This document shows positions 20,769-64,000 of a stretch of DNA of 64,000 nt, one piece after another. A program made the position numbers and the translations under genes. This stretch comes from Spirodela intermedia (taxonomy: Eukaryota > Streptophyta > Magnoliopsida > Alismatales > Araceae): NCBI GenBank assembly GCA_902729315.2, contig LR746276.1, positions 3,702,169 through 3,766,168 on the forward strand, in the 5' to 3' direction. Each line of letters starts with the position of its first letter. Position 1 is the first letter of the stretch. The notes below the pieces were generated by a model. That model saw only the letters and a list, made by a program, of their open reading frames with translations, was not told the origin of the DNA and ran no database searches.

Positions 20769-21989
20769 ATGGAGAACCGGGCGGTCGCCGCCGCCGCGAC
20801 GGCCGCCGTCTCCCAGGCCCTCGTCCTCCTCTTCTCCCTCCCTTCATATTCGTCCTCCTCAGCCGACGACGATCCCACGGCCCTCCTCTTCCACTTTCTT
20901 TCCTCTTTTGAGATCGCCGCCGCCGGGGACCTATTCCTGCCCAGAAATCGCAAGCGGCGGCGACACTTGGACGATCCCGGAGATCCTCCGCCGGGGGCGG
21001 CGGTGGCGGCGGCTCCGATCAGCGTCCGCCGGCAGCCGGATCACTTCAGGCTGGGCCTCGGTGTTGGGGCCTCCACCTTCGAGTGGCTGGCGGGGCTCCT
21101 CGATCCCCTCCTCGACTGGCCCGGCGGGCCACAGGAGCTCCCCGCCGCCGCCGCCAGGCTCGCTGTGGGGCTCTCCCACCTCGCCACCGGAGCTTCCTAC
21201 GGGGACCTCGCCGCCCGCTTTGCCGTCTCCGCCGCCGCCGCCCGCTCCTGCGCCCGCCGCCTCCGCCGCGTCCTCTGCACCAACTTCCGCTTCTGGGTCG
21301 CATTCCCCTCCCCCTCCAGCGAGCTCTCCGCCGGCTTCCGCCACCTCCCCGGCTGCCGCGGCGCCGTCGCCTGCGCCCGCTTCGACCTCGGCGGCAGCGG
21401 TGGCGCCGCCGCCCAGGTGGTCGCCGACGCCTCCTGCCGGATCCTCAACATAGCCGCCGGCTTCCCGAAAGACCAGCCGAGCTCCACGATCCTAAGACGG
21501 TCTTCTCTCTTCCAGGAAGCCGGGAGGCTGATGGGCCCACCGGAGGAGTACTTGGTCGGCGGGGAGGAGTACCCGCTTATGCCGTGGCTGATGGTGCCCT
21601 TCCTGGACGCCAGCGCCGCTTCGCCGGCGGCGTTCAATGCGGTGCACCGCCGGATCATGGCCCGGACGGTGCTACGGACCATCTCGAGCTTGATGAACTG
21701 GGGAGTTCTCAGCTCCGCCATGGAGGGGGAGGAGGACCCGAGGGCGGTGGCGGCGTGCGTTGCTACCTGCGCCATACTCCACAACATGCTACTGTCCAGG
21801 GAGGACTTCTCTTCTCTGACGGCGGCGCCACCGGAGGAGGAGGACGACGACGACGATGGCGATCGCTCGGGCAGCTCCGGCGAGAATCCGCCGGGCGGCG
21901 CCGCCCCTGCGGCGGCGGCACTGAGGGACGCTTTGGCCGACAAGGTCAGAGGAATCCTGACCCAACGGCATCCATCCAGCAGAGGATAA
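20769..21989 (+). CDS. HARBI1/ALP1-like transposase-derived protein, intronless
   Basis: A single exon; from the ATG at 20,769 it encodes 406 residues beginning MENRAVAAAATAAVSQALVL (an upstream in-frame ATG at 20,670 is less likely). PIF/Harbinger landmarks are GVGASTFEWLAGLLDP (about 99-113), a helix-turn-helix-like stretch ATGASYGDLAARFAVSAAA, RILNIAAGFPKD, YLVGGEEYPLMPWLMVPF (261-278), FNAVHRRIMARTVLR and CAILHNMLL (334-342). The DDE residues are gone: the DGT(H) position reads ACAR, GDSGYP reads GGEEYP, and the VERAFG glutamate position reads VLRT. That is expected of a domesticated gene such as plant ALP1, which joins PRC2-type complexes, not an active transposase. The ORF is long, intact and high-GC, supporting selection on the protein. 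There is an acidic run near the C-terminus (EEEDDDDDGD). Confidence 0.85.
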   Translation: MENRAVAAAATAAVSQALVLLFSLPSYSSSSADDDPTALLFHFLSSFEIAAAGDLFLPRNRKRRRHLDDPGDPPPGAAVAAAPISVRRQPDHFRLGLGVGASTFEWLAGLLDPLLDWPGGPQELPAAAARLAVGLSHLATGASYGDLAARFAVSAAAARSCARRLRRVLCTNFRFWVAFPSPSSELSAGFRHLPGCRGAVACARFDLGGSGGAAAQVVADASCRILNIAAGFPKDQPSSTILRRSSLFQEAGRLMGPPEEYLVGGEEYPLMPWLMVPFLDASAASPAAFNAVHRRIMARTVLRTISSLMNWGVLSSAMEGEEDPRAVAACVATCAILHNMLLSREDFSSLTAAPPEEEDDDDDGDRSGSSGENPPGGAAPAAAALRDALADKVRGILTQRHPSSRG

Positions 21990-26812: not shown

Positions 26813-27430
26813 TCAGAACTCATTGTCGGAGCTCTCAGGGCTCGGGCGCCGGTTGAGGTCCGGATTCATCGGCCTCCTCTCCCGATCCTCCTCCGCCGCC
26901 TCCGCCTGCGGCTGGTTCCGCCGCGGCCGATTGTAGACGTGGTGGTGGCGCCGCCCTAGGGTTCCGGCGTGCATCGCGTCCACCCTGGCCCCAACCTCCG
27001 TCGCCTTCTTCCGGATCACGGCGGCGGAGAGCGCCTCCGACTCCCCTCCTCCGCCGCCGTGCCTTTGGCCCCCGGCGCCTCCTCCCTCCTCCCCCTCCAC
27101 CGGGAGCTCATTCGGGAAGTTCAGCCTGGCGGATCTCCCCCGGAGGTGGTAGACCGCGATGTCGTAGGCGTGCGCTGCGGCGACGGCGGTGGAGTAGGAC
27201 CCAAGCCAGATCCTCGACCTCTTGTTCGGCTCCCTGATCTCTGCCACCCACTTCCCCCACTTCCTCATTCTCACCCCTCTGTACTGCCTCCCTCCTCCTC
27301 CTGCCGCCGCCGCCGCCGCAGCCGCCGCCGCCGCTCCTCCGATCGCTTCCCCACCGCCTTCCAACTTTCCCTCGCTTGGCGACGATCTCCCCCCTGAATC
27401 CTCGCTCGTCGAGCAGCAGTCCCCTACCAT
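26813..27430 (-). CDS. AP2/ERF transcription factor with DLN-type EAR motif
   Basis: A single exon of 205 residues. A Gly/Ala-rich leader with an 11-Ala run (33-43) precedes one AP2 domain at about 49-106 ([20 protein letters not shown], then [17 protein letters not shown] and GRSARLNFP). A single AP2 domain with WVAEIRE and WLGSY is typical of the DREB A-5/ERF group II branch. The C-terminus has DLNRRP (191-196), an EAR-type repression motif characteristic of that group, so it probably acts as a transcriptional repressor binding DRE/GCC-like elements. It is intronless, as usual for ERFs. Three G-boxes lie upstream, suggesting stress or ABA control. The Ala run is coded by a GCN repeat and may vary in length. 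Confidence 0.93.
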
Positions 27431-29550: not shown

Positions 29551-30907
29551 TTACGTTGGCCCAGAAGACGGAGGGGGGAGTAGCTCGTCGGCACGGAAGA
29601 TGGTGACGTTCATGTGTTGGTTACTCCGGCTGGCGGCGAACTCGAAAACGAGGATGTCTCCAATATCGAGATGGTTGCCGACGACGAAGCTCCTCCATCC
29701 ACGCTGGAAGTGGGAGAGCTTCCCGTAGCTCCGGCAGCCGACTTCCCACTCCCCGGCAGTGCTGCGGAGGACGACACTCCGTTCCTTACCGGGGAAGAAC
29801 TCCGCCGCGAAGCGCCAGGGGACCGTCTGAAACAACCAGGTCTACACATCGTCAACCCCCAGACACACTCTTCCGATCCTATAACGGCGAAGCTCTGGTT
29901 CTAATTCGGCGGCGAGAGAAGACTCACCAGGAAGGGCTTCCGGGAGATGTGGCTCCGCTTGATGACGCACAGGAAGGACGGGTGAACTGGTTTGACCGTC
30001 GTGGCAAGCCGCAGTGTCCTCTCTCTGTCCCCCGCCGAAACGGGACCTCTCTGGGAGATTAGATGAAGAGGGTAGGAGCTGCACGTCTTCTTACGCGTGG
30101 TATCATCGTCTGCAAGCTCTTCTTCTTCGGCGATGGTCTCCGTTTCTCCTCTCTTCCCCCACTGCCGCCACCGCCACCGCCACCGCCTCCCATCTCCTCC
30201 CGAGAAGCAGCGCCGAAGCTCGCCGCACTCTTGCGGACTGTCCTCTGGCTCGTCCAGGCCGACGGCCATTTTGGGGACGGAGACTGAACATGCTCCGGTG
30301 GGGGTTTCTCTCTCTCGAGCTCCAGGGGGGAAGCTCTCGCCGGCGGCGGGGGAGCACTTCTCGCACCCGCTGGGGCCGAACACCAGGACCTTGAAGCGCG
30401 ACACGCCGTTGAATCTGAAGACCAGGAAGTCGCCCGCTTCAAGAGACTGGGCTCTGGCAAACTCCTCCCAGCCTTCCTCAAGGAAGGTGGTGCAATCAGT
30501 CTTCTTTAGACTGACCCGCCATCGACCCTCTGATGGGTCCTTGAGCTCCACCGTCTCCGGCAGCGCCCCACGGAGACGAACCACAAACTTCCTGGGAACG
30601 CTCTGAGAACCCAGAAAGACGAATCTAGGTTGGAAATATAAATCATAGCATAATCCGTCATTCATCGTCATTTCCTTTGTCATTTCCCTATCGTCATTTC
30701 CGGCTAGATAGGGAAAGCAGACGAGATAATTGACTCCTATTTTCATTCTCATTTTTACTTTTTAATACATTCGGCAAGAGAGAGAGGAAGAGGAGAAGCC
30801 TACGATGAAGCCTGAAACATGGAAAGATGTACGTGTAGGGGAGAGGTAGTAGAAGTCTGCAAAAAATGTCCCGTCGCAGCTTCTTATTTCTACATTAGGT
30901 GCAGAGC

Positions 30908-34300: not shown

Positions 34301-35456
34301 CTTCTACAAGTCAATATCACTTATGAAGAGAAACCTATTTCCCACACATTTTTTATTCTTCAAGGTAATTTATCCAGAATTCAAATTTATATCATGTTAA
34401 ATGTAATGGAACGTCTTTGAATATTAATCTTATTTTCTACACTTCACTCAACTTATTATAGAACTGATCATTTTATTTGTTGAAAATAATACTTGTACTT
34501 CAAAGTTCTAGTATTTTTTATCTAATCATCATTTCTTACAATTTAACATCTTGGAAATATATTCTAATTTTTTTCTTGTGTTGAATCTGACATTTTTCTA
34601 TTATATATCTTTCTCAATGATTTTTTTCACTATATTTTGGTTGAAAGACATAAGGAATCAATGAATGGACTAGATCTGATAATTTAGATTCTCATTTCAG
34701 CATTAGTACAAGAATGCCATATTTATGATTAATTTTTCATTTTATCATTATTTTTTAGCATCAAAATTCCTAAACCAATGACTCTATCTTACAATTATGA
34801 TTGCATCCTAATAATTTTAATGTGCTGATTACAATTATGATTGCATCCTAATGATTCAAAACTCCTTTATTAGGGTTTATTAAAATTCGCATAGACTTTC
34901 TTTCTTTAGATGACAAAATAAAGAACGTGTATTTCTTCAAATTATGTACCAAGCAGCTATTAATTATAAAAACTTTAATACACAACATGATAGGTTTCAT
35001 CTTGACTGCTACTAATTAGAAATGTTTGGTACTGTGGCTTACTTATTTGATTTATGCTACAAAAATAATGCCTACATAGACGAGAAATATATAAAGTGAT
35101 GTAGATACAAATTTATTTAAATCATTTTTGTGTAAATGAAAGAAATATTTAATAAAAACACACCCGACATAGTTATGAATGCATATCGTGTACAACACAA
35201 TGATAATTTGCATAGTGAGTTATGCCTCATAATTCAAAAAACATGTAGTTTCTCTTTTCCATGTCTTCTTCATTAATTGAGACAAATACATTATTGAAAT
35301 ATGTAATTTATGTAAATGATTTATGAAATGATAAGATATGTAATTTATGAAAAAAGAGACAACTTTATTGAAATGATTTAATTTCTTAGAATATCATTTT
35401 AAAGTTAAAAATTAGTCAAATACTTATTTTCTTGAAATTTCGCTGAGGTTGACTTC
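34301..35456. other. AT-rich stretch, no gene seen
   Basis: No open frame of note. TACAATTATGATTGCATCCTA is repeated at 34,791 and 34,830. By position it would be intron or leader between the putative promoter and the mini-AP2 arms. Confidence 0.5.
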
Positions 35457-36032
35457 TTTCAAATGTAATATAAATATTACAAAATTCTACAACATCAAAA
35501 AGCCAAACTTTGTTCTAGAGATTTTGTGGTTAGTAGAGTTTAAATATTTCGGAAAAAACAAACTACAAATGCCATTTGCATGCAATTTATTACTCAATCT
35601 CTCTTCAAAGTTTTCTTAGGTGCGATTAGTTTTCTTACTTCATTTATGATTTAGTGATTCCTCTTTGTGAAAAAAATGTAAAGCCCTAAGTATTACTTCA
35701 CTATAATGATGTATAAAAATAATATATTTTTTTTCCAAAGAGAAAATTTGCACAAAAATAGAAATGGACATAATGTAGACATTATGTGATCCCTCTCTCT
35801 ATTTATATATTAATGCACATTCAAAGATTTTATTAAAGAAGATGGAGGAAACTTAGGATCACATTTCACTATAAAATATCATATCAATTGGCTTCATTGA
35901 GAAATTATAACTAAAATCTCATAAGAACCAAAACTTGACTAATAGAATAAATTTACAATGCATTTGATTGATTAACATGGCATGAATACATTTTCCAGGT
36001 GATGACAAAGAATAACAACAAGTCTGCTATTC

Positions 36033-36338
36033 TTATAGATTCTTGATGACTCTTAGTACTCGGAGGTACTCCACCAAGTCCATGTCATGCATGTTGCTTG
36101 ATGTTGAACATTCAGCCTTTTGGGAAAGGTCACCAGCAACATTGTTGTACATAGTAGCAGCCTCATCTAGAGTATTAAAGATACCTAAATGGTAGATGTT
36201 CTTCACGGGATCAATAAGCTCCACAGTCCACTTACTAGAGGAAGGTCGCATTACCCATTTATAGCTCTTGCCTCTTGTTGATGATTCTCCAATTATTTCT
36301 GCTGTTTGTACCTGATGGCATTCTTCATTATTTTCCAT
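36033..36338 (-). CDS. Mini-AP2 protein, left palindrome arm
   Basis: 101 codons, intronless, translation identical to the right-arm ORF. Residues about 26-73 form a divergent AP2/ERF-like domain (YKWVMRPSSSKWTVELIDP, then LGIFNTLDEAATMYNNVA) against the usual YRGVRxRPWGKWxAEIRDP and WLGTFxTAEEAAxAYDxAA. Changes at key sites are RGV to KWV, the loss of the RxR basic pair, and WLG to HLG. The flanks are short: an acidic N-terminus (MENNEECHQV) and a C-terminal helix (DMDLVEYLRVLRVIKNL). It has no activation or EAR motif, so a DNA-binding-domain-only microprotein is one possibility; a decayed fragment is another. A TATA-like ATATATAT (36,390-36,398) lies upstream. Confidence 0.6.
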   Translation of the reverse strand: MENNEECHQVQTAEIIGESSTRGKSYKWVMRPSSSKWTVELIDPVKNIYHLGIFNTLDEAATMYNNVAGDLSQKAECSTSSNMHDMDLVEYLRVLRVIKNL

Positions 36339-36687
36339 GTTTAAACTTCAATAATAGAGAAGAAAATGAGGATACATTCATCAAGCTTATATATATATGT
36401 ATGTCAAAGAAATGAAATTAGAAAGGTTATCCTTTGTGATGTTCTCCTTGATTTTCCTTCTTAAGAGGAATGTTTTGATAGTCAAAGGTGCACTATGTAA
36501 ATTAGAAAGGTGCACTTCCTTGAAACTAGAAAGTGCACCTTTGACTATCAAAACATTCCTCTTAAGAAGGAAAATCAAGGAGAATATCACAAAGGATAAC
36601 CTTTCTAATTTCATTTCTTTGACATACATATATATATAAGCTTGATGAATGTATCCTCATTTTCTTCTCTATTATTGAAGTTTAAAC

Positions 36688-36993
36688 ATGGAAAATAATG
36701 AAGAATGCCATCAGGTACAAACAGCAGAAATAATTGGAGAATCATCAACAAGAGGCAAGAGCTATAAATGGGTAATGCGACCTTCCTCTAGTAAGTGGAC
36801 TGTGGAGCTTATTGATCCCGTGAAGAACATCTACCATTTAGGTATCTTTAATACTCTAGATGAGGCTGCTACTATGTACAACAATGTTGCTGGTGACCTT
36901 TCCCAAAAGGCTGAATGTTCAACATCAAGCAACATGCATGACATGGACTTGGTGGAGTACCTCCGAGTACTAAGAGTCATCAAGAATCTATAA
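36688..36993 (+). CDS. Mini-AP2 protein, right palindrome arm
   Basis: Same 101-residue protein as the left arm, read on the other strand. It lies in the same orientation as the putative promoter at 34.0 kb, so it is probably the original copy, with the left arm the inserted inverted duplicate. A TATA-like ATATATATAA (36,629-36,638) precedes the ATG by about 50 bp. A transcript starting near 34.1 kb and reading through would contain both arms and could fold into a 1-kb hairpin. Confidence 0.62.
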   Translation: MENNEECHQVQTAEIIGESSTRGKSYKWVMRPSSSKWTVELIDPVKNIYHLGIFNTLDEAATMYNNVAGDLSQKAECSTSSNMHDMDLVEYLRVLRVIKNL

Positions 36994-37569
36994 GAATAGC
37001 AGACTTGTTGTTATTCTTTGTCATCACCTGGAAAATGTATTCATGCCATGTTAATCAATCAAATGCATTGTAAATTTATTCTATTAGTCAAGTTTTGGTT
37101 CTTATGAGATTTTAGTTATAATTTCTCAATGAAGCCAATTGATATGATATTTTATAGTGAAATGTGATCCTAAGTTTCCTCCATCTTCTTTAATAAAATC
37201 TTTGAATGTGCATTAATATATAAATAGAGAGAGGGATCACATAATGTCAACGTTATGTCCATTTCTATTTTTGTGCAAATTTTCTCTTCAGAAAAAAAAA
37301 ATTATTTTTATACATCATTATAGTGAAGTAATACTTAGGGCTTTACATTTTTTTCACAAAGAGGAATCATTAAATCATAAATGAAGTAAGAAAACTAATC
37401 GCACCTAAGAAAACTTTGAAGAGAGATTGAGTAATAAATTGCATGCAAATGACATTTGTAGTTTGTTTTTTCCGAAATATTTAAACTCTACTAACCACAA
37501 AATCTCTAGAACAAAGTTTGGCTTTTTGATGTTGTAGAATTTTGTAATATTTATATTACATTTGAAAAG

Positions 37570-38680
37570 AAATCACATATAAATGCATAGGCAACATCGG
37601 CATCACGCATGGCGCGCTATGGAAGGCAGATCGCTAACAAATGCATGCATGCTTATGCGATGGTAGGAAAACAAGGAAACAATAGATAACCCTTTTGCCT
37701 CATTTTTGGACATCTCCATAAAATCTACAACTCATTATTAGTTGAAACCTGATTTTAGCTTTGATCTACTCCAAGCAAGTCAAGGATGCTGCCCCCAGCA
37801 GATGGAGGCTTCCGAATCAATGCTCGTGCTCTCCAATGCTGCACTAAAGCTTTGTTTTTGACGGTATAAGCCTAAATTTCGATTTTGTTTCTCTGTGAGG
37901 CCTCCTGTTGCTGGTAGGAAACCATTTTAATGGTGAGTACTTGGGAGAGCACCCAAGCTTTTCTAAGGCCATGAAGAACAAGAAACTAGTACCAAGATCC
38001 TGGTGACTAGCCCCCCAAGGCCATGAATCAAAAGGAGGCAAGTATGGCTTCTCTAATTTTTGCTTCTAAGAACCTTGAATCAATAACCAAGCATCGAGAG
38101 AAATTGGCCCCCCACTAGAGCCATAAACCTAACAGAGGCAAGATGATGCCTTTGCTTTCAAATTTTCTGATGGCTAGTGGAAACCATGATCAACTCAAGA
38201 GATCCATTGAAAAATTAGTACGCTGAGGAGAAAGAGCATTTTCAAACTACAATTTTGGCAAATGGAGACCTAAACAGCCCCTCCAAGAAACCATCTTGAT
38301 GGTATAATTTTGTTCTCTGGGCCGTCAAAATTCCTCAGCTCAACTGGGGGGACTCTGATGTGGCATCAATCCAGTCGCATCTTCTCTTCCATCTTCCATG
38401 ATCTGGTCCAAAAGTGTGCTGATGAGCACAGGTAAAGCAAACGGTGGTCAATCTCCCATGTACCTGTGTCAAGCCTTATGTGATCCTGATGCATTGTAAA
38501 AAAAAAGAAAAAAGAAAAGAATCTGACGTTATAATTTTGTTCTTCGGTGTTATTTTTGATCCTCAAAACTCCCCACCAGCTTGATTCCATCACTGGTGCA
38601 ACTCTGACGGGGCATTAACCCGGTCATATCTTCTCTTCCATCGTCCATGATCTTCTCCCAAGTCAACTATTGGTGATCTG
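37570..38680. other. Intergenic region between the palindrome and the TFIIIC gene
   Basis: No supported gene. The phrase TCT-CCATC-TCCATGATCT is repeated near 38,383 and 38,634, together with similar GGGG-ACTCTGA-G-GGCAT text, suggesting a roughly 250-bp local duplication. Confidence 0.5.
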
Positions 38681-40066
38681 CTAATGGGTATCTTTCTTCC
38701 TGGCTGCTGGTGGCTGAAATTCTTCTTCAGTTGCCATCCTGAACTTCAGAACCTTGTTGAGGCCCCCAAGGGGCTTCACCTGTCGGCATGGGGATTGATT
38801 ATGGCCCACAATGGATTTGTCCTTGAAGAGATTCGCCTCAGATGGTCCAGTTTCTTGGTGGGCCAGGGCCGTTGAATTCTCTGCCAGAACAAATGGAGGA
38901 GGGATTAGACTAGGCTCTTTCCCCAACGAAACTTACCAGATCTTAGATTAATTGATCTCAAACCAAGATTTCTCAGCGAGATATTTTTCTCTCATCATTC
39001 TGTTCTGAATACGATTGTTAATATTAGAGCATAGGCGGAGGAAATTGCAGACTCACCGGTTTCAGAAAAGATATAGCATGTGCCAACGGTTTCTTCGTAT
39101 TTTCCAATCTGTTGGGGAAGGAGATATCCAATAATTAGTATAGTGGTAAGTAGGAGATATGACATCCCCAGTGCTAAAACTTTACCATTCAATTAAACCG
39201 TTATACACCATACGATCGACCCAGAGAGTCAAAATAACACACCCAGTCAACATCCAGGAGGGCCATGATCACAGTTGATGCCAAAAACAGAGTGCTGATC
39301 AGAGAAGGATGCAGGAGTTGACTTCTTCCGGAGAATACATAAGGTCAGAAGCGTTCATAAACAATATATCAATTTTTATCCAGCAATTCATGAGTTTGAG
39401 AAAACTATGGATGATAGGAGTAATAAACTTCCTCATCATGATCAGGTTATTACAAAAGCTGTATTTACTTCAACAAGTCTGCATTTGAGAAGCCCCCCCC
39501 CCCCCACCCCCCCAAGGTATCGAGCTTTAAAGATAAAGGAAGTACTTACCAGTTTCAGATTGTCATCGATAATCAGCAGAGGATTCAGAGTGTCCAGACC
39601 CTGCGAGAATCGGAAGATCGAATCCATTATTAGCCTCCCAATGAAGCTATTTTAAACGTAACATCATAAATGATGATTGAATTCCATTTTATAATTAATC
39701 AAAATTATCGAAGCCATTATATTATCCCAGGGATCGAGCTCATCATCAGCCCAAGAGAGTATGAAGAAAGGAGTTCGAAAGAAAAAAAACTTGGAATGTG
39801 ATGAACAGGAAGGATGACTTCATAGCTCCATGCAACTGAAGCTAGTAAATTATCCCAACAAGAAAGCATGAGAGCTGGTTACTCACAGAGAGCACATATG
39901 GTACATTTTCTGGTATATGGGCATGTTCATAAACGTCGTCCAAGTCAAGGAAAAGAAACTCTTCTTCTTCTTCTTCTTCTTCTTCTTCTTCTCCCTCCTC
40001 CTCCTCCCCCTCCTCATCCTGTTCTCTCTCATCACCCTCCTCTCTTGCCGCCGAACTGACTTCCAT
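38681..40066 (-). CDS. GTF3C6: General transcription factor 3C polypeptide 6-like (TFIIIC tau55), four exons
   Basis: Exons (minus strand) are 40,066-39,887, 39,600-39,550, 39,108-39,057 and 38,880-38,681, giving 160 residues. Joining them gives FLFLDLDDVYEHAHIPENVP-YVLS, then GLDTLNPLLIIDDNLKL, then IGKYEETVGTCYIFSETG/E, the conserved core of TFIIIC subunit 6 (triple-barrel domain), followed by a variable C-terminus ending ARKKDTH. TFIIIC binds A/B-box promoters of tRNA genes and recruits TFIIIB for RNA polymerase III. The N-terminus has a run of Glu (about 17-36) coded by a GAA/GAG microsatellite (39,961-40,010), so length variation is likely. Exons 2 and 3 code only 17 codons each. Upstream 5'-UTR exons may lie between 40,100 and 41,050. 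Confidence 0.9.
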
Positions 40067-44862: not shown

Positions 44863-46600
44863 ACCAGGCAGTTTTCTTCTTCGAGTAGCCTCTCTAGGGA
44901 TCTACACTTTGAATCCACACTTAAATCAATAAAAAACGCATCAAAATTTGATGTGAAACCTCAATGTTGTTTCACGTGAGCCAACGAAATGTCGGGGCAT
45001 TCGAAGTTAAGTTCCTCTACCCTTAAACAGTAGCTTAAATGTGTACAGGTTTACACAAGAGGTTGGGAATACATGTGTAGGGTTGTGATTAAATGAGGGC
45101 ATTTTTGTCCTTTTGGCTAGGATAAGATTAGGCAAAAATTGTTTCTTCTTGAGTTGATCTGAACCATTGGATTTGGAAGTCTTATTCGTAGCTGTAGGAT
45201 CTTCTCAAAAGTTGCAATCTGTTGCACCCTCGGTAAGTATGCTCCATCTACCATTGATTTTGTGGATGTTCTCGACAGCTTTCGATATCCTCATTTGATG
45301 ATGCCACATGTCAACACCTCAACCTTTAATTCTATCATCTCATTTCCATAGATCAGATCTTGTCTGTCGAGGCATATATTGGCTTCCTAAAAATCATAAA
45401 AAGATATAAAAAATTCTTAAAATTCTCTCATATTAATAAAAAATCAATTATGACTATAAAACTCAAATAAAAATTCGAAAAAAATTCTCTAAAATATTAA
45501 ACTTCATGAAATACTCAAAGAAATAATAAATGTTTATTTTTAATATGATAACATGCTATATTATAAGATTTACGCCTTTCATGTCATAATCATCATGTTA
45601 TCACTCATTGAATACTGCTGAATTATATTGTGCTCTAGATTGTTGTGTTGAAACTGACGAAAATGGTTAGTCACTCATCGGAAGTTTGTCATTGTTTAAG
45701 TTGAATATAAATTAAAGTTTCTCTCTCTCAACAGAGATCCCCTCTCCCCAAATAAAATAATGTCTAGACCATCTTGGGAGAAGGCAATAAGGTGGTCTAC
45801 CCTTGCATGCGCACGTGTGTACATGTGTTCCTTGCCCCACGACTGGTTGGTCACCCGGACATGGAAGGGGAGTGATGCACATGTGTGCAGAGTGAGGCCT
45901 TTGCCACTTGAGCCCAGCTCGTGGCTCCCCTAGTTTGGGTCTACCCGCTCGACTGTTGTCCCCCCTTCGAGTCAGCTTCCAAGTGCCAACTTGCTAATAG
46001 ATAGAAGATTTTTTTATATTTTATTCTTTGTATTTTAATAATAAAAAAATACGCTAAGTATTTTAACTTCAGACTTTTAAAATTAACAATATATCTTATA
46101 TTGGGGAAGAGGGGAAGGGGAGGAGGATCGAATCTGAGAGGGGAAGGGGAAGGGGAGGAACACGAACTGGACGAAAGAGGGGAAGGGGAGGATGATCGAA
46201 TATGAGAACTTCCCATCAAAACTCTTCTAATATTGGGGAAGAAAGGAAAGAATAGAAGGATATTGGATCAGAACTAAGTGAGAACGGGAGAGAAGCAGGC
46301 AGACTTACCATATGTGGGATTCCCATCAGCCTGTTCGTCAATAGAACATGACCCCCCGATATACGTGCTAAAATAAGGTTTCAAAACATGCTAATAGTTA
46401 TTAATATTTAGAAAAATCCTTCAATATAGGCTCATGGTATATATCAATATTACCATCTATGGTAGCTAAATATAAATAATAATAAAATGTGAATAGTGAA
46501 ATCATAAAATTACTTTGCATAAAGTTCATCCATGGTATAGAGCTTCCATGATTGATTTTTTTTTTATGACTTCAAATAATCAGATCAATAACCTTGAAAA
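44863..46600. other. AT-rich DNA with a decayed LTR-like patch
   Basis: At 45,825-45,925, CTTGCCCCACGACTGGTTGG followed by GACATGGAAGGGGAGTG resembles the core of the LTR family that dominates from 48.5 kb. The rest has purine-rich tandem phrases (GGGGAAGGGGAGGA, 46,105-46,195) and no supported gene. Confidence 0.4.
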
Positions 46601-46810
46601 ACATCGATATCTGGAATATTAATATCTGATAAAATAAAGAAGATTGACAAAGCTTATGTTCACATTGAACTATAAAATATCCTATGTAATGGGCTTAAGT
46701 GATGGCCTGTAAGAATTGTGATAAAGAATTATAATTGTATTTCACTCGTAAACGATCCTGTGGATACATTATTCAGGTGGTGACAAAAAATAAGAAATAA
46801 TTTTCTATTC

Positions 46811-47113
46811 TCATTGCTTCTTGATGACCTTGAGTGCTTCGAGGTACTCCACCAAGTCCATGTCATGTAGGTTCCTTGATGCTGAAGGTTCAGCCTTTTG
46901 AGACAGCTCACTAGCAATGTTGTTGTAGATAGTAGTAGCCTCATCTAGACTATTATAGGCCCCTAAATGATACCTATTTTTGAGGGGATCAATGAGCTCC
47001 ACAGTCCACTTACCACCAGAAGGTCGCATTACCCCTTTATAGCTGCTCCTTGTGAATGACTCTCCGATCGTTTCTCCTGTTTGTACTTGATGGCATCCTT
47101 CATGATTTTCCAT
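46811..47113 (-). CDS. Mini-AP2 protein, single diverged copy
   Basis: 100 codons, homologous end to end with the palindromic ORFs (start MENHEGCHQVQTGETIGESF; end DMDLVEYLEALKVIKKQ). Its AP2-like domain is slightly closer to consensus: YKGVMRPSGGKWTVELIDP keeps the Gly that is Trp in the palindrome copies. HLG replaces WLG here too. Flanking homology covers about 46,600-47,255, ending at GAGGAATGTTTTGATGG, exactly where the palindrome approaches its central loop. That a small ORF stays open in a clearly diverged copy argues for past or present selection. Orientation is minus, with the putative promoter near 50.5 kb separated from it by a solo LTR. Confidence 0.6.
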   Translation of the reverse strand: MENHEGCHQVQTGETIGESFTRSSYKGVMRPSGGKWTVELIDPLKNRYHLGAYNSLDEATTIYNNIASELSQKAEPSASRNLHDMDLVEYLEALKVIKKQ

Positions 47114-47255
47114 ATTGAAACTTTAATAATGCACAGGAAAATCAGTATACACCCATCAAGCATATATACATGTCTATCCACATAATGAAATAAGAAAGGT
47201 TATCTTATGGGATATTGTACTTGATTTTCTTCCTTAAGAGGAATGTTTTGATGGT

Positions 47256-48518
47256 GAGATTATTTCTAGAATCATTTATGGAATATGATCTGATTGTGAG
47301 ATTCATCTAATAAGTTTGTTATGACAATTTCATTGATTATGCTAGATTATAGGTATTTATTACATGCTGATTTTGATAAGACTTTTTCCCAAGTATAACC
47401 TACTTCTTATTCAATCTTCTAGAATCATATTCTCAAGGATTTCCTTTCTACATGTAGTGAATTTTATCAGACCAGTGATGAAATCTTATAAGTTTGTTTC
47501 CTTAGTGATAGCCACTCCTTTATCTTAATATCTTAGAAATATGTAGGAAATCACTCAAAGAGAGATTTTCTTGTAGGGAGCTTGGAGATCTAGAAAAATA
47601 AATATAGAAATGGATCTAATGTGCCTCTTGATACTTTGTTAATAATGTCATTGACATCCAAATGGCATCAAATGATTTTAGTAATGACCAATTTTCTTTT
47701 TGTATCTCACTTGGTTGTTATACTGTGAACTTAAACATTTTCTTTCCACCATTTACCTTTTTATGATCTTGGTTATTCAATTTACGATCTTTAATCATGA
47801 TATTTTTAAATGGCAGACTAAATCATTAAGGTAATTTATATGAGAATAAAATAACATAGATCATGCTGCTACTTTTGAAAATTAAAGCATGTTCATGATG
47901 TTTACAAACATTATGATGGTGTAAAATGTTTGATTGGACATAATTAAATGGTAAAAAACCTTATTCAAATTTTATCCATAACTTAGACAGTTTCTTTCCA
48001 CCTTTTGAAATTTTTTAAATTTATAATATTTAATCCTCATTATTTTAAATGGTGAACTAAATCGTGTAGTGAAGCCAATCACAATTATGTGGGAATTTTT
48101 CTAACCTGAAAAATTTTATAGGAAGCAAATTTATTTACACACGTTAAGGATAATATTGACCATAGTTTGATGGTGGAAAATGTGTAATTGGGCATATTTT
48201 CAAAGTTGTAACTAAATGACATTCCATGCATGGAAGTATGTTGCATTTTGACAATTAATGATAAGCTCTAGATTATCCTTCAAGTGATAAATCATAATTA
48301 TTAATGGTTAGATCCATAAAATTAGAACATTGATGTACATTTATTATTTTTAACATAATCACAAAATATTGATTCTATAAGAGGCTAGCTACAGATATAT
48401 AGAATGTAAACAAGATTAATGCTCAAAAACATCTAATTACATATTATATCATAAATATTTGAATGCAAGATAAGCTCCCTTCAAGAATAGAGAATGTGTT
48501 TACAATATGTTTCTCTTG
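47256..48518. other. AT-rich DNA upstream of the single mini-AP2 copy
   Basis: No supported gene. If the promoter-like block at 50.5 kb belongs to this gene, this stretch is its leader or intron. Confidence 0.4.
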
Positions 48519-48523
48519 ATAAG

Positions 48524-50271
48524 TGATAAGTCTTTATTATCATGAGTTAATAATTAGTAAATAATATAGTTTTAGCCGTAACTTATGATAAATAGACTTA
48601 TATTTGTGTTAAAGTGTGAAAAGTGGTTTTTAGTTGATTAACGTAATTTTTTGGGTAATTATGTGATTTTATATGAATTTATATGATTTTTGCAGTCTTA
48701 CTTTTGAAATAAATGAAGAAAAAGAAATAAAAATAAAAATATAGCAAAATGGGGGAGACCCGCCGGCTAGCTGGGCCCACAAAGTGGTCGGAAGCACAAT
48801 CAGGGAGGAGCCGTGAGTAGAGGCTCGAGCGACTAGGACCGATAGGAGCATGTATGCGTCACTCTCCTTCCACGTCACTAGTGACCAATCGGTTGTGGGG
48901 CAAGGAGTGGTCGTACTCACGGGAGAAAGGGACTTATTTGCAAATGTAATATTACTATATATTTGTCCGAAACTTCGGCGCACAAGCGATGTGGGACTAA
49001 ACCCGCGTCACACCTTCCCTAGAAAAGGTTTGATGTTTTGAATACCTAAACTACCCCTTATTTATAACAGAGAGATACCATGATGACGTTATTAGATAAG
49101 GGCATTAGAGTATGTATGTCAATCTCTCTCATGTAGGCGAGCAATCGGCGTGGGTTTGAATCCTCTCAAGAGCCAAAACTCATAATTTTTATTTGATTAT
49201 TGCGACTTTCTTGCAGATTACCGGTGAAGGATTAAGCCACCAGAATCGCTAGATCATTGACGAAAATCTTGTCAACGTAATTCTCAGAGCATTGTTACTA
49301 AAATTGTTGAACAATTCGCGATAAAAGGATCGTAAATCCATCGAGTAAAGGATCTCCGATTGATCGACGAACAAGCCATCGTTGGGAAGAGGACGATCCA
49401 CCGAGAGACAAGTCGCCACCTCCTGAGAGCATACCAGGTGTGATGAAGAGCCTCCTCTTGCTGCGCGGACTTGAGGATGAAGCTCCCTAACATGCGCCCC
49501 ACCTCCATCTAGCTCTTCTCTGTCAGGTGACAGTCGTCAAGAGTCCCAAAGTCGCCATTTTTTCGCTTCACCGAGTGACAGCCGCCGGAGATGATTTGAC
49601 GACCCCTTTCATTGATCTCTAGACTTCGTAAAGAGATCTAGAGATTGCCCACGTTGTCCTTGTCCAAGGAAAGCCCTCGAGGTTGTGGACACTACATGAC
49701 AATCCTCCCGAACGCTCAAGATTCTAGTGCATCGCTGACGCATCGCCGCCGTGACATCAGATTTTTATTTTCCTGCTTTGAACTTACTTTTCGCTTCATT
49801 TAGTGATAATTTGTGTGATTTAAATTTACCAAGATATACTTCATTCAATTATGATTCTTCCCGCTTTTATAGATCTAAATTTGATCAATTAAATCGTCTA
49901 TAATCGCTTACGTAAGAATTGTTGGGCAGAACTCTATTTCCACTCAATTTGCGTTCGTCGGGTGCTGATGTCATCTTGACGTCCACACCCTTATTTCCCT
50001 TTTTCGTAAATTTTAAATATATTTTATTTTTATTTTCTAGTATAAAATTTAGAAAAAATAATATTATTTGAGGAAAATTTTGAATAATTACCTGATATTA
50101 TATTACATCCCTATGATCGACTTGTAAAATTACCGCTATTTTTAGAAGTTTAATTGAATTATAATTGATATATTTGTTCAGAAATACTTCTAAATATCCA
50201 AAAAATTATATTTTCTAGTTTAATAAATTTTAAATTTACGTGATTTACTATACAACAACTAAGTCACATCA
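48524..50271 (+). mobile_element. Solo LTR 1 (1,748 bp) with 5-bp target duplication
   Basis: Starts TGATAAGTCTTTATTATCAT and ends CAACTAAGTCACATCA, flanked by the direct repeat ATAAG at 48,519-48,523 and 50,272-50,276. No primer site or gag/pol follows, so it is a solo LTR, presumably of a gypsy element. Inside are a tRNA-like B-box phrase (GGTTTGAATCC near 49,154) and GACGTCA-type motifs. It lies between the minus-strand promoter-like block and the mini-AP2 copy. Confidence 0.93.
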
Positions 50272-50289
50272 ATAAGAGACATCAACTCC

Positions 50290-50640
50290 TAGAGGAATCA
50301 ATAATTTTGTGCAATGTTAGATATAATTTGGAGTTCTAATAATTTTCTTTTTCACATGAAGAGGAAAAAATAGAGGATCATGAGTACAAAAGAGTATTAA
50401 AAAATGAGTATTAGGTGATCCTCAACTGAAGGGGTTGTAATTCAAGAAAGAAACAGAAGAGAAATCACCTTGTGCACTAGAGACGTTCTAGGACGCCTCT
50501 TGTAGTATCTTATATAAGATTACATAGATTAGATTCTTTATTACTTGGCTCTACATGTGGATTTGACATCCAAAAGATAAAATCAACTTAACTTCATTTC
50601 ATAAGTAACCATATCTACGGAACGACAACCACATCTATAA
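50290..50640 (-). promoter_or_regulatory. Putative promoter/leader of the mini-AP2 locus (minus copy)
   Basis: The reverse complement reads TTTTGGATGTCAAATCCACA, then GAGCCAAGTA, a TATA-type ATCTTATATAAGAT (about 50,510) and GTCTCTAGTGCACAAG, matching 33,940-34,300 on the plus strand. It points toward the mini-AP2 ORF at 47.1 kb. Confidence 0.45.
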
Positions 50641-52093
50641 AATTCAATCAGTATAATCCTTATTTCTCATAATTTATAAATTACTATCAAGTTATCTATT
50701 GAAAGTATTAATAAATTTAAATTTTAGCATTAGGTTATATGATTAATCTAAATTTTAATAATGCATTTATAAATCAAGAGAGTGTTGAAATTTTTTCATA
50801 CTAGTTATACCCCTCATTCAATGTAGTTGGATTTGTTTTGGTCATTAGTTTTTTTAATCATAAAGCACATGAGGTGATGTCTTCATTATCATGAGTTAAT
50901 AATGAATAAATAATATAGTTTTAGCCTTAACTCATGATAAATAGACTTATATTTGTATTAAATTATGAAAAATAATTTTTAATTGATTAGTGTGATTTTT
51001 TGGCTAATTATGTGATTTTATATGAATTTATATGATTTTTATAATCTTGTTTTTGAGATAAATGAAGAAGAAGAAAAAAGAAAAGAAAAAAAGGGGGGAC
51101 CTGCCGGCCAGCCAAGGGTCTACAAGTGGGTCGGAAGTATAGTCAGGGAAGAGCCATGAGTGGGGGCTCGAGCGGCTATAGACTGATGGGGGCACGTGCG
51201 CGCCACTCCTCTTCCACGTCACTAGAGGCCAGCCAACTATGGGGCAAGAAGTTGTCGTACACACAAGAGAAAGTGACTTATTACTTGGAAATATGATATT
51301 ACTATATATTGGCCCAAAACTTTGACGTACAACTAATGTGGGACTAAACCCGCATCACACCTTCCCCAAAAAGGCTTCAAAGATTTTAATCACTACCTCT
51401 TATTTATAACAGAGATATATCATGATGACGTCACTTTATAAAGACATTACAATATTTATTTCAATCTCTCTTATGTAGGCGAGCGACTGAGGGGGGTTCG
51501 AATCCTCTTCGAGCCAAAACTCTTATTTTTATTTGATAAAATCGTAACTTTTCTGTAGATCACCGGCGAAGGATTAAGTTGCTAGAATCACTGAATCAGT
51601 AGCAAAAATCTTGTCAACATGATTTGTAGAGGATTGTTACTAAAATTACTGAACGATTTGTGATAAAAGGAATATGAATCTATCGAGTAAATTATCTTCG
51701 ATTGATTGACGAACAAGTCGTCGTTGAGAAGAGGACGATCTGCTGGGAGATGAGTTGCCACCTCCTGAGAGCGTACCAAATGTAATAAAGAGCCTCCTAT
51801 TGCTGTGTGGACCTAAGGATGAAGCTCCTTGACATGTGTCCCACTTCTATTTAACTTCTCTTCGCTAAGTGACAACTGTCGGAGAGCCACAAAGTTACCA
51901 TTTTTCTACTCCGCCTGGTGATAGTCACCGGAGATGATTCGACGACCTATTTTACTGATCTTTAGACTTCACAAGAAGATCTAGAGATTGCTCATGTCGT
52001 CCTTATCTAAGGAGAGCTTTTGAGGTAGTGAACACTACACAATAATCCTCTCAAATACTCAGAATTTCAGTACATCATCAACGTATCACCACC

Positions 52094-55000
52094 TGACGTG
52101 ACTTAGTCGTTGTATAGTAAATCACGTAAATTTAAAATTTGTAAAACTAAAAAAAATATAATTTTTTAGATATTTAGAAGTATTTTTGAACAAATATATC
52201 AATTATAATTCAATAAAAATTCTAAAAATAGTGATAATTTTCCAAGTCGATCAGAAGGATGTAATATAATATTAGTTAATTATTCAGAATTTTTCTCAAA
52301 GAATACTATTTTTTATGAATTTTATGTTAGAAAATAAAAATGAAATATATTTAAAATTCACAAAAAGGGAAATAAGGGTGCGGACATCATGATGAGGTCA
52401 ACATCTGGCAAATGCGAATTGGGCATAAACACAATTCTTCCTGGCGATTCTTACGTAAGTGATTACAAATGATTTAATTGATCAAATTAAGATCTATAAA
52501 AGCTGAAAGAATCGTAATTGAATTAAGTATATCTTGGTAAATTTAAATCACACAAATTATCACTAAATGAAGTGAAAGTTAAATTGAAAGCAAGAAAACA
52601 GAGTTCCGGTGTTGCGGCGACGATGCGTCAGCAATGCACCGGAATCCTGGTTTGGGAGGATTGTCGTGTAGTGTCTATGGCCTCGGAGGCTCTCTTTGGA
52701 CAAGGACGACGTGGGCAATCTCTAGATCTCCTTGCGAAGTCTAGAGATCAATGAAATGGGTCGTCGAATCATCTTCGGTGGCTGTCATTCAGTAGAGTGA
52801 AAAAACAGCGACTTTGCGACTCTTCGGTGGCTGTCACCTGATAGAGAGGAGCTGGATAGAGGTGGGGCACGTGTTAGGGAGCTTCATTCTCAGGTCTGCG
52901 TAGCAAGAGGAGGCTCTTCATCGCATCTGGTACGCTCTCAGGAGGTGGCGACTCGTTTCCTAGTGGATTGACCTCTTCCTGACGACGGCTTGTTTGTCGA
53001 TCAATCGGAGATGTTTTACTCGATAGATTCACAATCCTTTTATCGTGAATCATTCAACAATTTTAGTAGCAATGCTCCGTGAATCGCATTGACGAGATTT
53101 TCGTCGATGATCTAGCGATTCTAGCAGCTTAATCCTTCACTGATGATCTGCAAGAAAGTCACGATAATCAGATAAAAAATATGAGTTTTGGCTCTTAGGA
53201 GGATTCGAACCCACGCCAATTGTCCGCCTACATGAGAGAGATTGACATATGTACTATAATGCGCTTATCTAATGATGTCATCATGGTATCTCTCTATTAG
53301 AAATAAGGGGTAGTTTAGGTATTCAAAATATTGAACCTTTTCTGGGGAAGGTGTGACGCGGGTTTAGTCTCACAGTACTTGTGTGCCGAAGTTTCGGGCG
53401 AATATATAGTAATATTACATTTACAAGCAAGTCCCTTTTTCCTACGTGTACGACCACTTCTTGCCCCACAGCTGGTTGGCCACCGGTGACGTGGAAGGGG
53501 AGTGGCGCACACGCGCCTGACGTGACTTAGTTGTTGTATATTAAATCACACAAATCTAAAATTTATAAAACTAGAAAATATGATTTTTTAGATATTTAGA
53601 AGTATTTATGAATAAATATATCAATTATAATTCAATAAAACTTCCAAAAAATAGCGATAATTTTCCAGGTCGATCACAAGGATGTAATATAATATCTGGT
53701 AATTATTCATAATTTTACTCAAAGAATACTATTTTCTATAAATTTTATACTAAGAAATGAAAAGGAAATATATTTAAAATTCACAAAAAAAGAAAAATAA
53801 GGGTGTAGACGTCAAGATGACGTCAGCGCCCGGCGAACGTGAATCGGGTGAAAACAGAGTTTTGCCTGGTGATTCTTACATAAGCGATTATAGACGATTT
53901 AATTGATCAAATTAAGATGTGTAAAAGCTGGAAGAATCGTAATTGAATGAAGTATATTTTGATAAATAAAAATCACACAAATTATCACTAAATGAAGCGT
54001 AAAGTAAGTTGAAAGTAAGAAAACAGAGTTCCGGCGTCGCGGCGGCAATGCGTCGACGATGTACCAGAATCTTGAGCGTTCGGGAGGATCGTCATGTAGT
54101 GTCCACGGCCTCGAAGGCTCTCCTTGGACAAAGACGACGTGGGCAATCTCTAGATCTCCTTGCGAAGTCTAGAGATCAATGAAATGGGTCGTTGAATCGT
54201 CTCTGGCGGCTGTCACCTAGTAGAGCGGAAAAACGACGACTTTGCGGTTCTCTGGCGGCTGTCACCTGACGGAGAGGAGCTGGATGGAGGTGAGGCGCAT
54301 GTCAGGGAGCTTCATCCTCAAGTCCACGCAGCAAGAGGAGGCTCTTCATCGCATCTGATACGCTCTCAGGAGGTGGCAACTCGTCTCCCGGCGGATCGTC
54401 CTCTTCCCGACGATGGCTTGTTCGTCGATCAATCGGAGATGATTTACTCGATGGATTCACGATCCTTTTATCGCGAATCCTTCAGCAATTTTAGTAACAA
54501 TGCTCTGTGAATCGCATTGACGAGATTTTCGCCGATGATCTAGCGATTTTGGTTGCTTAATCCTTCACCGGTGATCTGCAAGAAAGTTGCGATAATCAGA
54601 TAAAAATATGAGTTTTGGCTCTGGGAGGATTCGAACCCGCGCCGGTTGCCCCCCGCCTTTTCTGAGGAAGGTGACGGGTTTAGTCCCACATCGGTTGTGC
54701 GCCGAATTTTTGGGCGAATATATAGTAATGTTACATTTCGAAGCAAAGTCCATTTCTCGCGCTTGTACGACCACTCCTTGCCCCACAGCCGGCTGGCCAC
54801 TGGTGACGTGGAAGAGGAGTGGCGTACACGTGCCCCCATCGGTTCAAGCCGCTCGAGCCCCTACTCATGGCTCATGCCCGACTGTGCTTCCGACCCACTT
54901 GCGGGCCCGGTTGGCCGGTGGGTCCCCCTGATTTTGCTACATTTTTATTTTAATTTCTTTTCCTTCATTTATCTTAAAAGTAAGACTGTAAAAATCGTAT

Positions 55001-55471
55001 AAAATTAGATAATTACCCAAAAATTCATGTTAATCAACTGAAAACTACTTTTCACACTTTAACAAAAATATAAGTCTATTTATCATGAGTTAAGGCTAAA
55101 ACTATATTCTTTACTAATTATTAACTCATGATAATGAAGACTTATCACCCCATCAGTCCTAGTCGTTCGAGCCCTTGCTCGCAGCTCCTCCCCGACTGTG
55201 CTTCCAATCCGCTTGTAGACTCGGCTGGCCGGCGGGTCCCCTCTATTTTGCTATATTTTTATTTTTATTTCTTTTTCTTCATTTATCTCAAAAATAAGAC
55301 TATAAAAATCATATAAATTCGTAGAAAATCACATAATTACCTAAAAGTTCACGTTAATCAATTGAAAACTACTTTTCACACTTTAACACAAATATAAGTC
55401 TATTTATCATGAGCTAAGGCTAAAACTATATTAGTTACTAATTATTAACTCATGATAATGAAGACTTATCA
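52094..55471 (-). mobile_element. LTR copy B, inserted in A and itself split by C
   Basis: The pieces 52,094-53,517 and 55,148-55,471 sum to 1,748 bp, a full LTR in minus orientation (TGACGTGACTTAG at left, CTTATCA at right). It lies inside copy A. Target duplications at the junctions are eroded. Confidence 0.9.
53518..55147 (-). mobile_element. LTR copy C, innermost insertion
   Basis: A 1,630-bp minus-oriented LTR with both termini (TGACGTGACTTAG and GAAGACTTATCA) and an internal deletion of about 110 bp near 54,650. It interrupts copy B at the CCCC of its GTGCCCCCATC-type motif. Confidence 0.9.
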
Positions 55472-56079
55472 CTGCACAATGTTGGAATTTTGTTTTCATG
55501 CTTTCAACTTAATTTTTGCTTCATTTAGTGATAATTTGTATGATTTAAATTTACCAAACTATTTTTCATTTCATTACAATCATTTCGGCTTTTATAGATC
55601 TTAATTTGATCAATTAAATCATCTATAATTGTTTACATAAGAATCGAGAGTTCTGCTTGATTCGACTTCGTCGGGTGGTGATGTCATCATGACATCCACA
55701 CCCTTATTTTCCTTTTTTGTGAATTTTAAATATATTTCATTTCTTTTTCTTAGTATAAAATTCATAAAAACTCATATTCTTCGAAAACAATTCTGAAAAA
55801 TTATTCGATACTATATTACATCCTTATGATCGACCTAGAGAATTTCTAATATTTTTGAAACTTTTATTGAATTAGAATTAATATATTTGTTCAGAAATAC
55901 TTCTAAAGATCTGAAAATTAGTATTTTATAGTTTTATAAATTTTAAATTTGCGTGATTTATTATACAACGATTAAGTCACATTCTAGCCTACATCACATG
56001 AAATAAGAATTTTATTGAGATATTTGAAATACATACAAGTCTTTGACTATAAATTAAGATGACAACTGTGTTTTGACTA

Positions 56080-61556: not shown

Positions 61557-61561
61557 AGCAT

Positions 61562-63302: not shown

Positions 63303-63407
63303 AGCATCTTAATTCTTCTCAACTTTGCATAGGCTTCTTATTTATTTCACATTTGCTCACTTCTTATATTTCAATTTTACCTCATTCTTGACATTTGTCT
63401 ACCTACA

Positions 63408-64000
63408 TGATGTGACTTAATTATGGTATAATAAATCATGTAAATTAAAAATTTATAAAACTTGAAAATACTATTTTTGAGGATATTTATAAATATTTCA
63501 AAATAAATTTATCAATTATAATTCAATAAAAGTTTTAAAAATATTAGGGAATTTTCAAATAGATCACAGGAATGTAATATAATATCGGGTAATATTTTAA
63601 AATTTTTCACAAAGAATATAATTTTTTTTATAAATTTTAGACTAAGAAATGAAAATAAAATATATTTAAAAAATTATGAAAAAAAAATAAGAATGTGGAG
63701 ATTAAGATGATGTCATCACCTCGAAGAATTTAATTTGAGCGAAAATAGAGTTCTACCTAACGATTCTTACATAAGCGATTACAGATGATTTCATGGGTCA
63801 AATTAAGACCTATAAAAGTCAAAAGAATTGTATTTGAATGAAGAAGGTTTTTGAAATTTGAAATCACATAAAGTATCACTAAATTAAGTAAAAATTAAGT
63901 TGAAAGTAAGAAAGTCAATGTTTCGGCCTCGCGACAGTGATTATTAGAATTTTGTATGTTTGATAGGATCATCGAATGATGTTCATAGCCTCAAAAGCTC
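63408..64000 (-). mobile_element. LTR F, cut by window end
   Basis: TGATGTGACTTAATTATGG starts a further minus-oriented copy 106 bp after copy E. It continues through the segment matching AGTTGAAAGTAAGAAA and runs off the window. Target duplication cannot be tested. Confidence 0.85.

What the first reader, a model, noticed from the sequence alone, without database searches (positions are those of the whole stretch)
35457..37569. Palindromic mini-AP2 locus: a 1-kb-arm hairpin carrying two identical divergent genes
Two 1,037-bp arms around a 39-nt loop are nearly perfect reverse complements, and each holds the same 101-codon AP2-like gene. Such young inverted duplications of a gene are the proposed origin of plant MIRNA and hairpin-siRNA loci. 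A read-through transcript would be self-complementary over the whole gene and could act in trans on the diverged copy at 46.8 kb. The same DNA also keeps two intact ORFs, so protein output and RNA silencing may compete.
Basis: partly seen in the sequence, partly recalled or inferred. Interest (0 to 1): 0.9.

Follow-up and report, generated by a model that had tools for sequence, protein, structure and literature searches.

The report
Head-to-head duplicated mini-gene palindrome in duckweed
A small plant gene in a duckweed sits next to its own mirror-image copy, forming a near-perfect 2-kb DNA palindrome, and a decayed version of the same arrangement lies on another chromosome; this is real and unusual, but whether it makes silencing RNA is untested.

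Summary
The palindrome is real. Arms 35450-36494 and 36532-37575 are 98.85% complementary around a 37-nt centre; both carry the identical 101-codon ORF, head to head. The genome is the duckweed Spirodela intermedia (source names). Artefact is unlikely: the outer flanks differ and both arms seem to carry their own substitutions. It is a low-copy gene duplication, not a transposon: six copies found. A second head-to-head pair, on contig C11, is a decayed palindrome (main arm block 77%, stop codons). The protein is a remote AP2 derivative: no Pfam AP2 match, 97.7% profile-profile probability, and three positions invariant in 13 of 13 compared AP2 stretches lost only in the palindromic member of four. 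A 663-bp difference-free block spanning the gene fits arm-to-arm gene conversion (P=0.00045). Silencing is possible but unshown: the genes' own promoters should point outward, yet a head-to-head Arabidopsis palindrome (VIM4-VIM2, Cvi) does make siRNA (PMC13213937, passages). Best reading: a young or conversion-refreshed inverted gene duplication, hairpin RNA being an untested by-product.

The parts
35450..36494 (-). left arm of the palindrome (reverse complement of right arm, 98.85%)
36495..36531 (.). 37-nt non-palindromic centre, flanked by AGGTGCACT/AGTGCACCT and holding a further GGTGCAC copy (filler-like)
   Evidence: the filler reading is inference
36532..37575 (+). right arm of the palindrome
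36033..36338 (-). 101-codon AP2-derived ORF, left copy
36688..36993 (+). 101-codon AP2-derived ORF, right copy, nucleotide-identical to the left copy
36339..36687 (.). 349-bp shared, nearly symmetric region between the two ATGs, presumed to hold both promoters
   Evidence: promoter role inferred
36586..37248 (+). 663-bp difference-free stretch between arms (right-arm coordinates) spanning the ORF; conversion-tract candidate
   Evidence: P=0.00045 under uniform placement
36937..36963 (+). 27-nt exact match to the 46.8-kb copy; 36939-36963 also exact in the 81.4-kb copy
34593..35449 (.). left flank, homologous (with a gap) to the flank of the right arm of the C11 pair, L008 to 6898
37576..38700 (.). 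right flank, single match in the genome search
   Evidence: query 37570-38700, 1 match
46811..47113 (-). diverged single copy (S46), 100 aa, intact
38616..38648 (-). site matching exon 1 of public gene model P0004, outside the right arm; that model would cross the whole palindrome
   Evidence: the S. intermedia paper's gene models are similarity-based, no RNA data named (PMC7645714)

Best explanation
A genuine head-to-head inverted duplication of a small single-exon gene descended from an AP2/ERF domain. Proposed origin (inferred): a fold-back or end-joining event about 160 bp upstream of the ATG, leaving a filler-like 37-nt centre. Shown: both ORFs are intact and identical, and the arms are nearly identical. 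Inferred: the two genes fire outward from the shared 349-bp region as redundant copies of a degenerate protein; arm-to-arm gene conversion keeps the inner two thirds identical while the distal third drifts; any hairpin RNA from occasional crossing transcription is a by-product, not an established function of the locus.
For: Arms 98.85% with 10 merged difference events, 9 of them in the distal 327 bp, and a 663-bp clean run (P=0.00045 under uniform placement, 200,000 draws). At nine substitutions, the left arm departs from C11_R at 36585, 37290, 37452 and 37572, the right arm at 37249, 37252, 37289 and 37370, and 37300 is unresolved; that suits mutation in both arms after duplication. The right flank has a single match and the left flank is shared with C11, so this is a duplication at a fixed locus. 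Six copies found (6 of 6 candidates scored). Unrooted tree: C11 pair together 98%, S46+S81 100%, C13 arms together; pairing each C13 arm with its C11 counterpart is rejected (p-AU 2.1e-34). dN/dS to S46 0.52.
Against: Coding constraint is weak: the dN/dS interval 0.27-1.11 includes 1, and simulated chance survival of the ORF under substitutions alone is 0.14 for palindrome to S46, 0.073 with S81 added. The palindromic protein has changed 10 of 18 AP2-invariant positions against 7-8 of 18 in its three relatives. S46 agrees with the right arm at all four sites counted as right-arm changes, and S81 at two; the distal region of S46/S81 aligns poorly and the alignments were made to the right arm, which biases towards it, but the direction of those four changes is not secure. 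Clustering of differences could be uneven mutation rather than conversion. No expression data, so outward transcription is assumed.
Confidence: 0.62

Rival explanations
1. Hairpin-siRNA locus working like VIM4-VIM2 (Cvi) or PAI1-PAI4: a transcript starting in or beyond one arm crosses the centre, folds, is cut by DCL4 into 21-nt siRNAs and silences the mini-AP2 paralogues in trans.
For: Same geometry as VIM4-VIM2: head-to-head, 50-bp centre there against 37 bp here, identical first exons, siRNA seen there (passages and section 7 of PMC13213937). A Dicer_dimer search finds a DCL4-like and a DCL1-like exon plus one unassigned. 7 of 1,024 arm 21-mers match S46 exactly and 187 with up to 3 mismatches; 0 with up to 4 in one control stretch, either strand. 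Public gene model P0004 starts outside the right arm and ends in the left arm, so its pre-mRNA would cross both arms.
Against: Own promoters should read outward. The published S. intermedia gene models are similarity-based (GeMoMa; the methods name no RNA data), and the sister model P0001 has its first exon in a high-copy repeat, so the short exon of P0004 is doubtful. DCL2 missing and DCL3 unexpressed in S. polyrhiza (passages). A word search for Spirodela intermedia with small RNA gave 3 papers, seen as a listing only, none of which is by title a small-RNA study.
Confidence: 0.22
2. History variant, compatible with the best explanation: an old head-to-head palindrome that predates the C11/C13 split, kept young on C13 by gene conversion and centre shortening, and decaying on C11.
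For: Both loci are head-to-head pairs with the same flank on one side. C11 arms differ from each other (K2P 0.244) nearly as much as from C13 (0.27-0.30). The outer ends lie within about 100 bp of each other.
Against: Centres differ: C11 arms hold about 230 bp more upstream sequence. The best tree joins the two C11 copies, so conversion would have been needed there too (98% bootstrap), although alternatives are only marginally worse (p-AU 0.046 and 0.079). Two independent inverted duplications explain the tree as well.
Confidence: 0.3
3. Assembly or chimeric-read artefact.
For: Inverted artefacts occur in long-read data (recalled). G000 fits the Nanopore/Illumina assembly of clone 8410 by size (136.5 against 136.6 Mb). 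The reads themselves could not be seen.
Against: Nine substitutions between the arms, at least four of them apparently in the left arm; different outer flanks, the right one with a single match; public model P0004 carries the glycine codon found in the left arm only, though it may rest on the same reads; the palindrome is 2.1 kb while the 8410 assembly used Nanopore reads of at least 10 kb.
Confidence: 0.04
4. Fold-back transposable element with 1-kb terminal inverted repeats.
For: Shape: long inverted repeats with a short centre.
Against: Only six copies of the coding part found genome-wide; C11 homology runs past the left arm end to 34593, so the arm end is not an element end; no target-site duplication seen by eye (no formal test).
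Confidence: 0.04

Closest known systems
VIM4-VIM2 inverted repeat of Arabidopsis Cvi-0 (PMC13213937; passages and section 7 seen)
   Same: Head-to-head gene pair, near-perfect palindrome, very short centre (50 bp there, 37 here), identical first exons
   Different: VIM4-VIM2 has measured siRNA, crossing 5' RACE tags and trans effects; here nothing is measured. VIM genes are methylation regulators; this gene is a degenerate AP2 derivative. There a deletion between neighbouring genes shortened the centre.
PAI1-PAI4 inverted repeat (Arabidopsis Ws, Cvi; as described in passages of PMC13213937)
   Same: Inverted gene duplication with related copies elsewhere that are silenced in trans
   Different: Tail-to-tail there, so genes read inward; head-to-head here
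Proto-MIRNA loci born by inverted gene duplication (concept recalled; PMC5223194 only seen in the listing)
   Same: Long fold-back sharing sequence with its source family
   Different: Arms here keep intact ORFs over 1 kb; no precise duplex known
AP2/ERF domain (PF00847)
   Same: Remote profile homology over 60 columns, 35% identity
   Different: No Pfam match; 10 of 18 positions invariant in 13 compared AP2 stretches are changed
Gene-conversion palindromes (e.g. human Y; recalled)
   Same: Near-identical arms with a difference-free block
   Different: Far smaller; conversion inferred only

Membership tests
Hairpin-siRNA inverted-repeat gene locus | Near-perfect inverted repeat of a gene with short centre | tested here: met
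   98.85%, 37-nt centre
Hairpin-siRNA inverted-repeat gene locus | Transcript crossing the centre | not testable with these tools
   No RNA data; only a public gene model, P0004, implies it
Hairpin-siRNA inverted-repeat gene locus | siRNAs from both arms | not testable with these tools
   No small-RNA reads on hand
Hairpin-siRNA inverted-repeat gene locus | Dicer able to cut long hairpins present | tested here: inconclusive
   DCL4-like and DCL1-like Dicer_dimer exons found, third unassigned; whole genes not read
MIRNA gene | Precise miRNA/miRNA* duplex | not testable with these tools
   needs small-RNA reads
AP2/ERF transcription factor | Pfam AP2 match above cut-off | tested here: not met
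   0 families for the palindromic protein at E<=1; no AP2 for S46
AP2/ERF transcription factor | Profile homology to AP2 domains | tested here: met
   hhalign probability 97.7%; ATERF1 best solved relative, E=0.0026 by profile, 0.011 by the single sequence
AP2/ERF transcription factor | Invariant AP2 positions, among them DNA-facing Arg/Trp, kept | tested here: not met
   Of 18 columns invariant in 13 of 13, three Arg and one Trp are changed in all four family proteins; two Gly and one Arg more are changed in the palindromic one only. DNA-facing role recalled.
AP2/ERF transcription factor | AP2 fold | tested here: inconclusive
   Model pLDDT 73.6 has strands then helix, but Foldseek gave no match at E<=0.001 and no AP2 among the 50 shown of 458
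Fold-back transposable element | Element ends coincide with arm ends; dispersed copies | tested here: not met

The most novel reading that the evidence does not exclude
A degenerate AP2 mini-gene family that repeatedly, or ancestrally, adopts head-to-head palindromes, with one palindrome kept near-identical by gene conversion because its hairpin RNA (21-nt, DCL4-made, in a lineage short of DCL2 and DCL3 activity) represses its single-copy relatives: a protein gene turning into an RNA silencer while both ORFs are still open.
Probability: 0.1. Interest if true: 0.75.

Novelty: new member of a known kind. Interest (0 to 1): 0.45.

Why it matters
If it makes siRNA, it would be a natural hairpin locus in a clonal plant genus whose sister species lacks DCL2 and DCL3 activity, a clean test of whether DCL4 alone suffices. 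Even without RNA, the fresh and decayed palindromes of one gene family let one study how inverted gene duplications form, convert and die in a clonal plant.

Tried and rejected
Rejected: fold-back transposon, assembly artefact (reads not seen), and plain descent of each C13 arm from its C11 counterpart without conversion (p-AU 2.1e-34). Foldseek on the model from a four-sequence alignment gave nothing usable. Dicer assignment stayed incomplete for L076. The tblastn listing was cut in the output; the placing of P0004 rests. Literature, seen as listings: 20 of 793 papers, 4 of 4, 10 of 1,249, 6 of 6, 5 of 5, 3 of 3, 2 of 2; in what was listed I saw no report of inverted-repeat siRNA in Spirodela, which is no proof that none exists. 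One extraction script recovered only 2 of 13 AP2 stretches and the next printed the minus-strand loci in the wrong orientation; all 13 were then aligned on the right strand.

Full report
OBSERVATION. Reverse-complement comparison gives arms 35450-36494 and 36532-37575, 98.85% identical over 1,046 columns with 9 mismatches and 2 gaps, and 37 nt between them. Each arm carries the same 101-codon ORF, 36033-36338 (-) and 36688-36993 (+); the 306 coding nucleotides do not differ. The ORFs are divergent, with 349 bp between the ATGs. The diverged copy at 46811-47113 (-) exists.

WHERE IT IS. Proteins P0001, P0003 and P0004, named Spirodela intermedia by their sources, match the family. The held assembly has 136,496,439 bases in 32 contigs, which fits the published clone 8410 assembly (136.6 Mb; section 4 part 1 of PMC7645714); that identity is inferred from size. 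P0001 and P0004 lie on a 6,676,301-base contig and P0003 on one of 9,247,472, close to but not equal to the C13 (6,666,668) and C11 (9,241,439) lengths here, so another version of an S. intermedia assembly also holds the left-arm gene. Whether it is independent of the reads behind this window is not known.

COPIES. A DNA search of the whole assembly with the ORF found six places: the two arms, the 46.8-kb copy (S46), one at 81.4 kb in window terms (S81; L007 4616-4915, intact, 99 aa), and two on C11. A protein search at E<=10 listed 48 matches; seven rows belong to these six copies and 41 are weaker; 13 of those 41 were aligned and all 13 read as AP2 stretches. The C11 pair is itself an inverted repeat: L008 4899-5512 against 4636-4002 at 77%, with further blocks out to 6245 and 3564 at 72-86%, around a 262-bp centre. 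Its coding parts contain stop codons. So a decayed head-to-head palindrome of the same gene exists on another contig.

NOT A TRANSPOSON. The left flank of the C13 palindrome, out to 34593, is homologous to the flank of the C11 right arm, while the right flank 37570-38700 has a single match in the genome. The left arm end therefore does not behave as an element end.

PROBABLY NOT AN ARTEFACT. Of nine substitutions between the arms, comparison with C11_R puts the odd state in the left arm at 36585, 37290, 37452 and 37572, and in the right arm at 37249, 37252, 37289 and 37370; 37300 is unresolved. Against this, S46 agrees with the right arm at all four of the latter sites and S81 at two; but S46 and S81 align poorly in that region, and the alignments were made to the right arm, so only the left-arm changes are secure. 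Public model P0004 ends with a peptide that has the left-arm glycine codon. Long reads could not be inspected.

HISTORY. The unrooted tree of six copies groups C11_L with C11_R (98%) and S46 with S81 (100%). A topology pairing each C13 arm with its C11 counterpart is rejected (p-AU 2.1e-34); making C13 sister to C11_R (0.046) or C11_L (0.079) is only marginally worse than the best tree. The C11 copies are about as far from each other (K2P 0.244) as from C13 (0.27-0.30), against 0.012 for the C13 arms in the same six-way alignment. Either each locus made its own palindrome, the C13 one much later, or an older palindrome has been homogenised on C13. Differences between the C13 arms are clustered: one near the centre, then 663 bp without any, then the rest in the distal 327 bp; with uniform placement of the 10 merged events a run that long has P=0.00045. 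The clean run includes 255 bp of 3' noncoding sequence, so coding selection alone does not explain it. Gene conversion is the preferred reading, uneven mutation the alternative.

PROTEIN. Pfam finds nothing in the palindromic protein at E<=1 and no AP2 in S46. A four-sequence profile finds ATERF1 as best solved structure (E=0.0026), and profile-profile comparison with 13 AP2 stretches of this genome gives 97.7%. Those 13 were found with S46 as query, so they are not an unbiased sample. Of 18 columns invariant in 13 of 13, the palindromic protein changes 10, S46 and S81 8 each and P0002 7; three arginines and one tryptophan are changed in all four, and two glycines and one arginine in the palindromic protein only, while it alone keeps one alanine. 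Several of these residues face DNA in ATERF1 (recalled), so GCC-box binding is doubtful for the whole family. The AlphaFold2 model (mean pLDDT 73.6) has strands followed by a helix, but Foldseek found no match at E<=0.001 and no AP2 among the 50 shown of 458. The best-scoring full AP2 proteins of the genome, L019 for one, look like ERF group VI by eye (group recalled). dN/dS: palindrome-S46 0.52 (0.27-1.11), palindrome-S81 0.48 (0.25-1.00), S46-S81 0.59 (0.25-1.99). Simulated survival of the ORF by chance under substitutions alone is 0.14, or 0.073 with S81. Coding constraint is thus likely but weak.

HOW IT MIGHT WORK. Head-to-head genes fire outward, which yields two identical sense mRNAs and no hairpin. 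A hairpin needs a start inside or beyond the other arm. There is evidence for this in Arabidopsis Cvi: VIM4-VIM2 is head-to-head with a 50-bp centre, 5' RACE tags cross the centre, and siRNA comes from the stem with trans effects on VIM relatives (passages and section 7 of PMC13213937). The present locus matches that geometry closely. Public model P0004 has its first, 12-residue exon matched at 38648-38616 (-), beyond the right arm, so its pre-mRNA would cross both arms; but the published S. intermedia gene models come from a similarity-based predictor with no RNA data named in the methods, and P0001's first exon sits in a high-copy repeat. Target potential is real: 7 of 1,024 arm 21-mers match S46 exactly and 5 match S81, 187 and 172 with up to 3 mismatches, and none with up to 4 in one control stretch, either strand. 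The genome has three Dicer_dimer matches, one DCL4-like, one DCL1-like, one unassigned. In S. polyrhiza DCL2 is missing, DCL3 is not expressed and DCL4 is expressed (passages of PMC10989885). The testable prediction is 21-nt siRNA without 24-nt siRNA.

VERDICT. Observation confirmed; interpretation partly supported. The most likely reading is a well-preserved inverted gene duplication in a degenerate AP2 family, with hairpin silencing a live rival. The fresh and decayed palindromes in one genome are the most useful new fact.

Noticed in passing
48522-55980 and 61560-63913: High-copy repeat of about 1.5 kb in both orientations: 70 matching stretches listed genome-wide, a lower bound (40 of 3,599 candidates scored), with many inverted pairs at 76-87% in the window. 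Public model P0001 takes its first exon from it.
   Followed up: partly
34565-34800: Dispersed repeat of about 200 bp next to the palindrome, with 13 further places in the genome besides C11:5.05 Mb.
   Followed up: no
20769-21989 (+): 406-aa ORF with a DDE_Tnp_4 endonuclease domain (E=2e-09), possibly a domesticated Harbinger-type nuclease (recalled).
   Followed up: no
26813-27430 (-): Canonical AP2/ERF ORF (PF00847, E=3.2e-11) about 8 kb from the mini-AP2 palindrome.
   Followed up: no
29901-30752 (-): ORF with a B3 DNA-binding domain (PF02362, E=4e-17).
   Followed up: no
L008:834-1962: Overlapping direct repeats (71-81%) beside a 419-aa protease-like ORF near the C11 pair (protease reading by eye).
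   Followed up: no
46441-48526 and L007:4270-6323: S46 and S81 lie in a shared 2.1-kb segment (87%), each bordered by the high-copy repeat but on opposite sides.
   Followed up: partly
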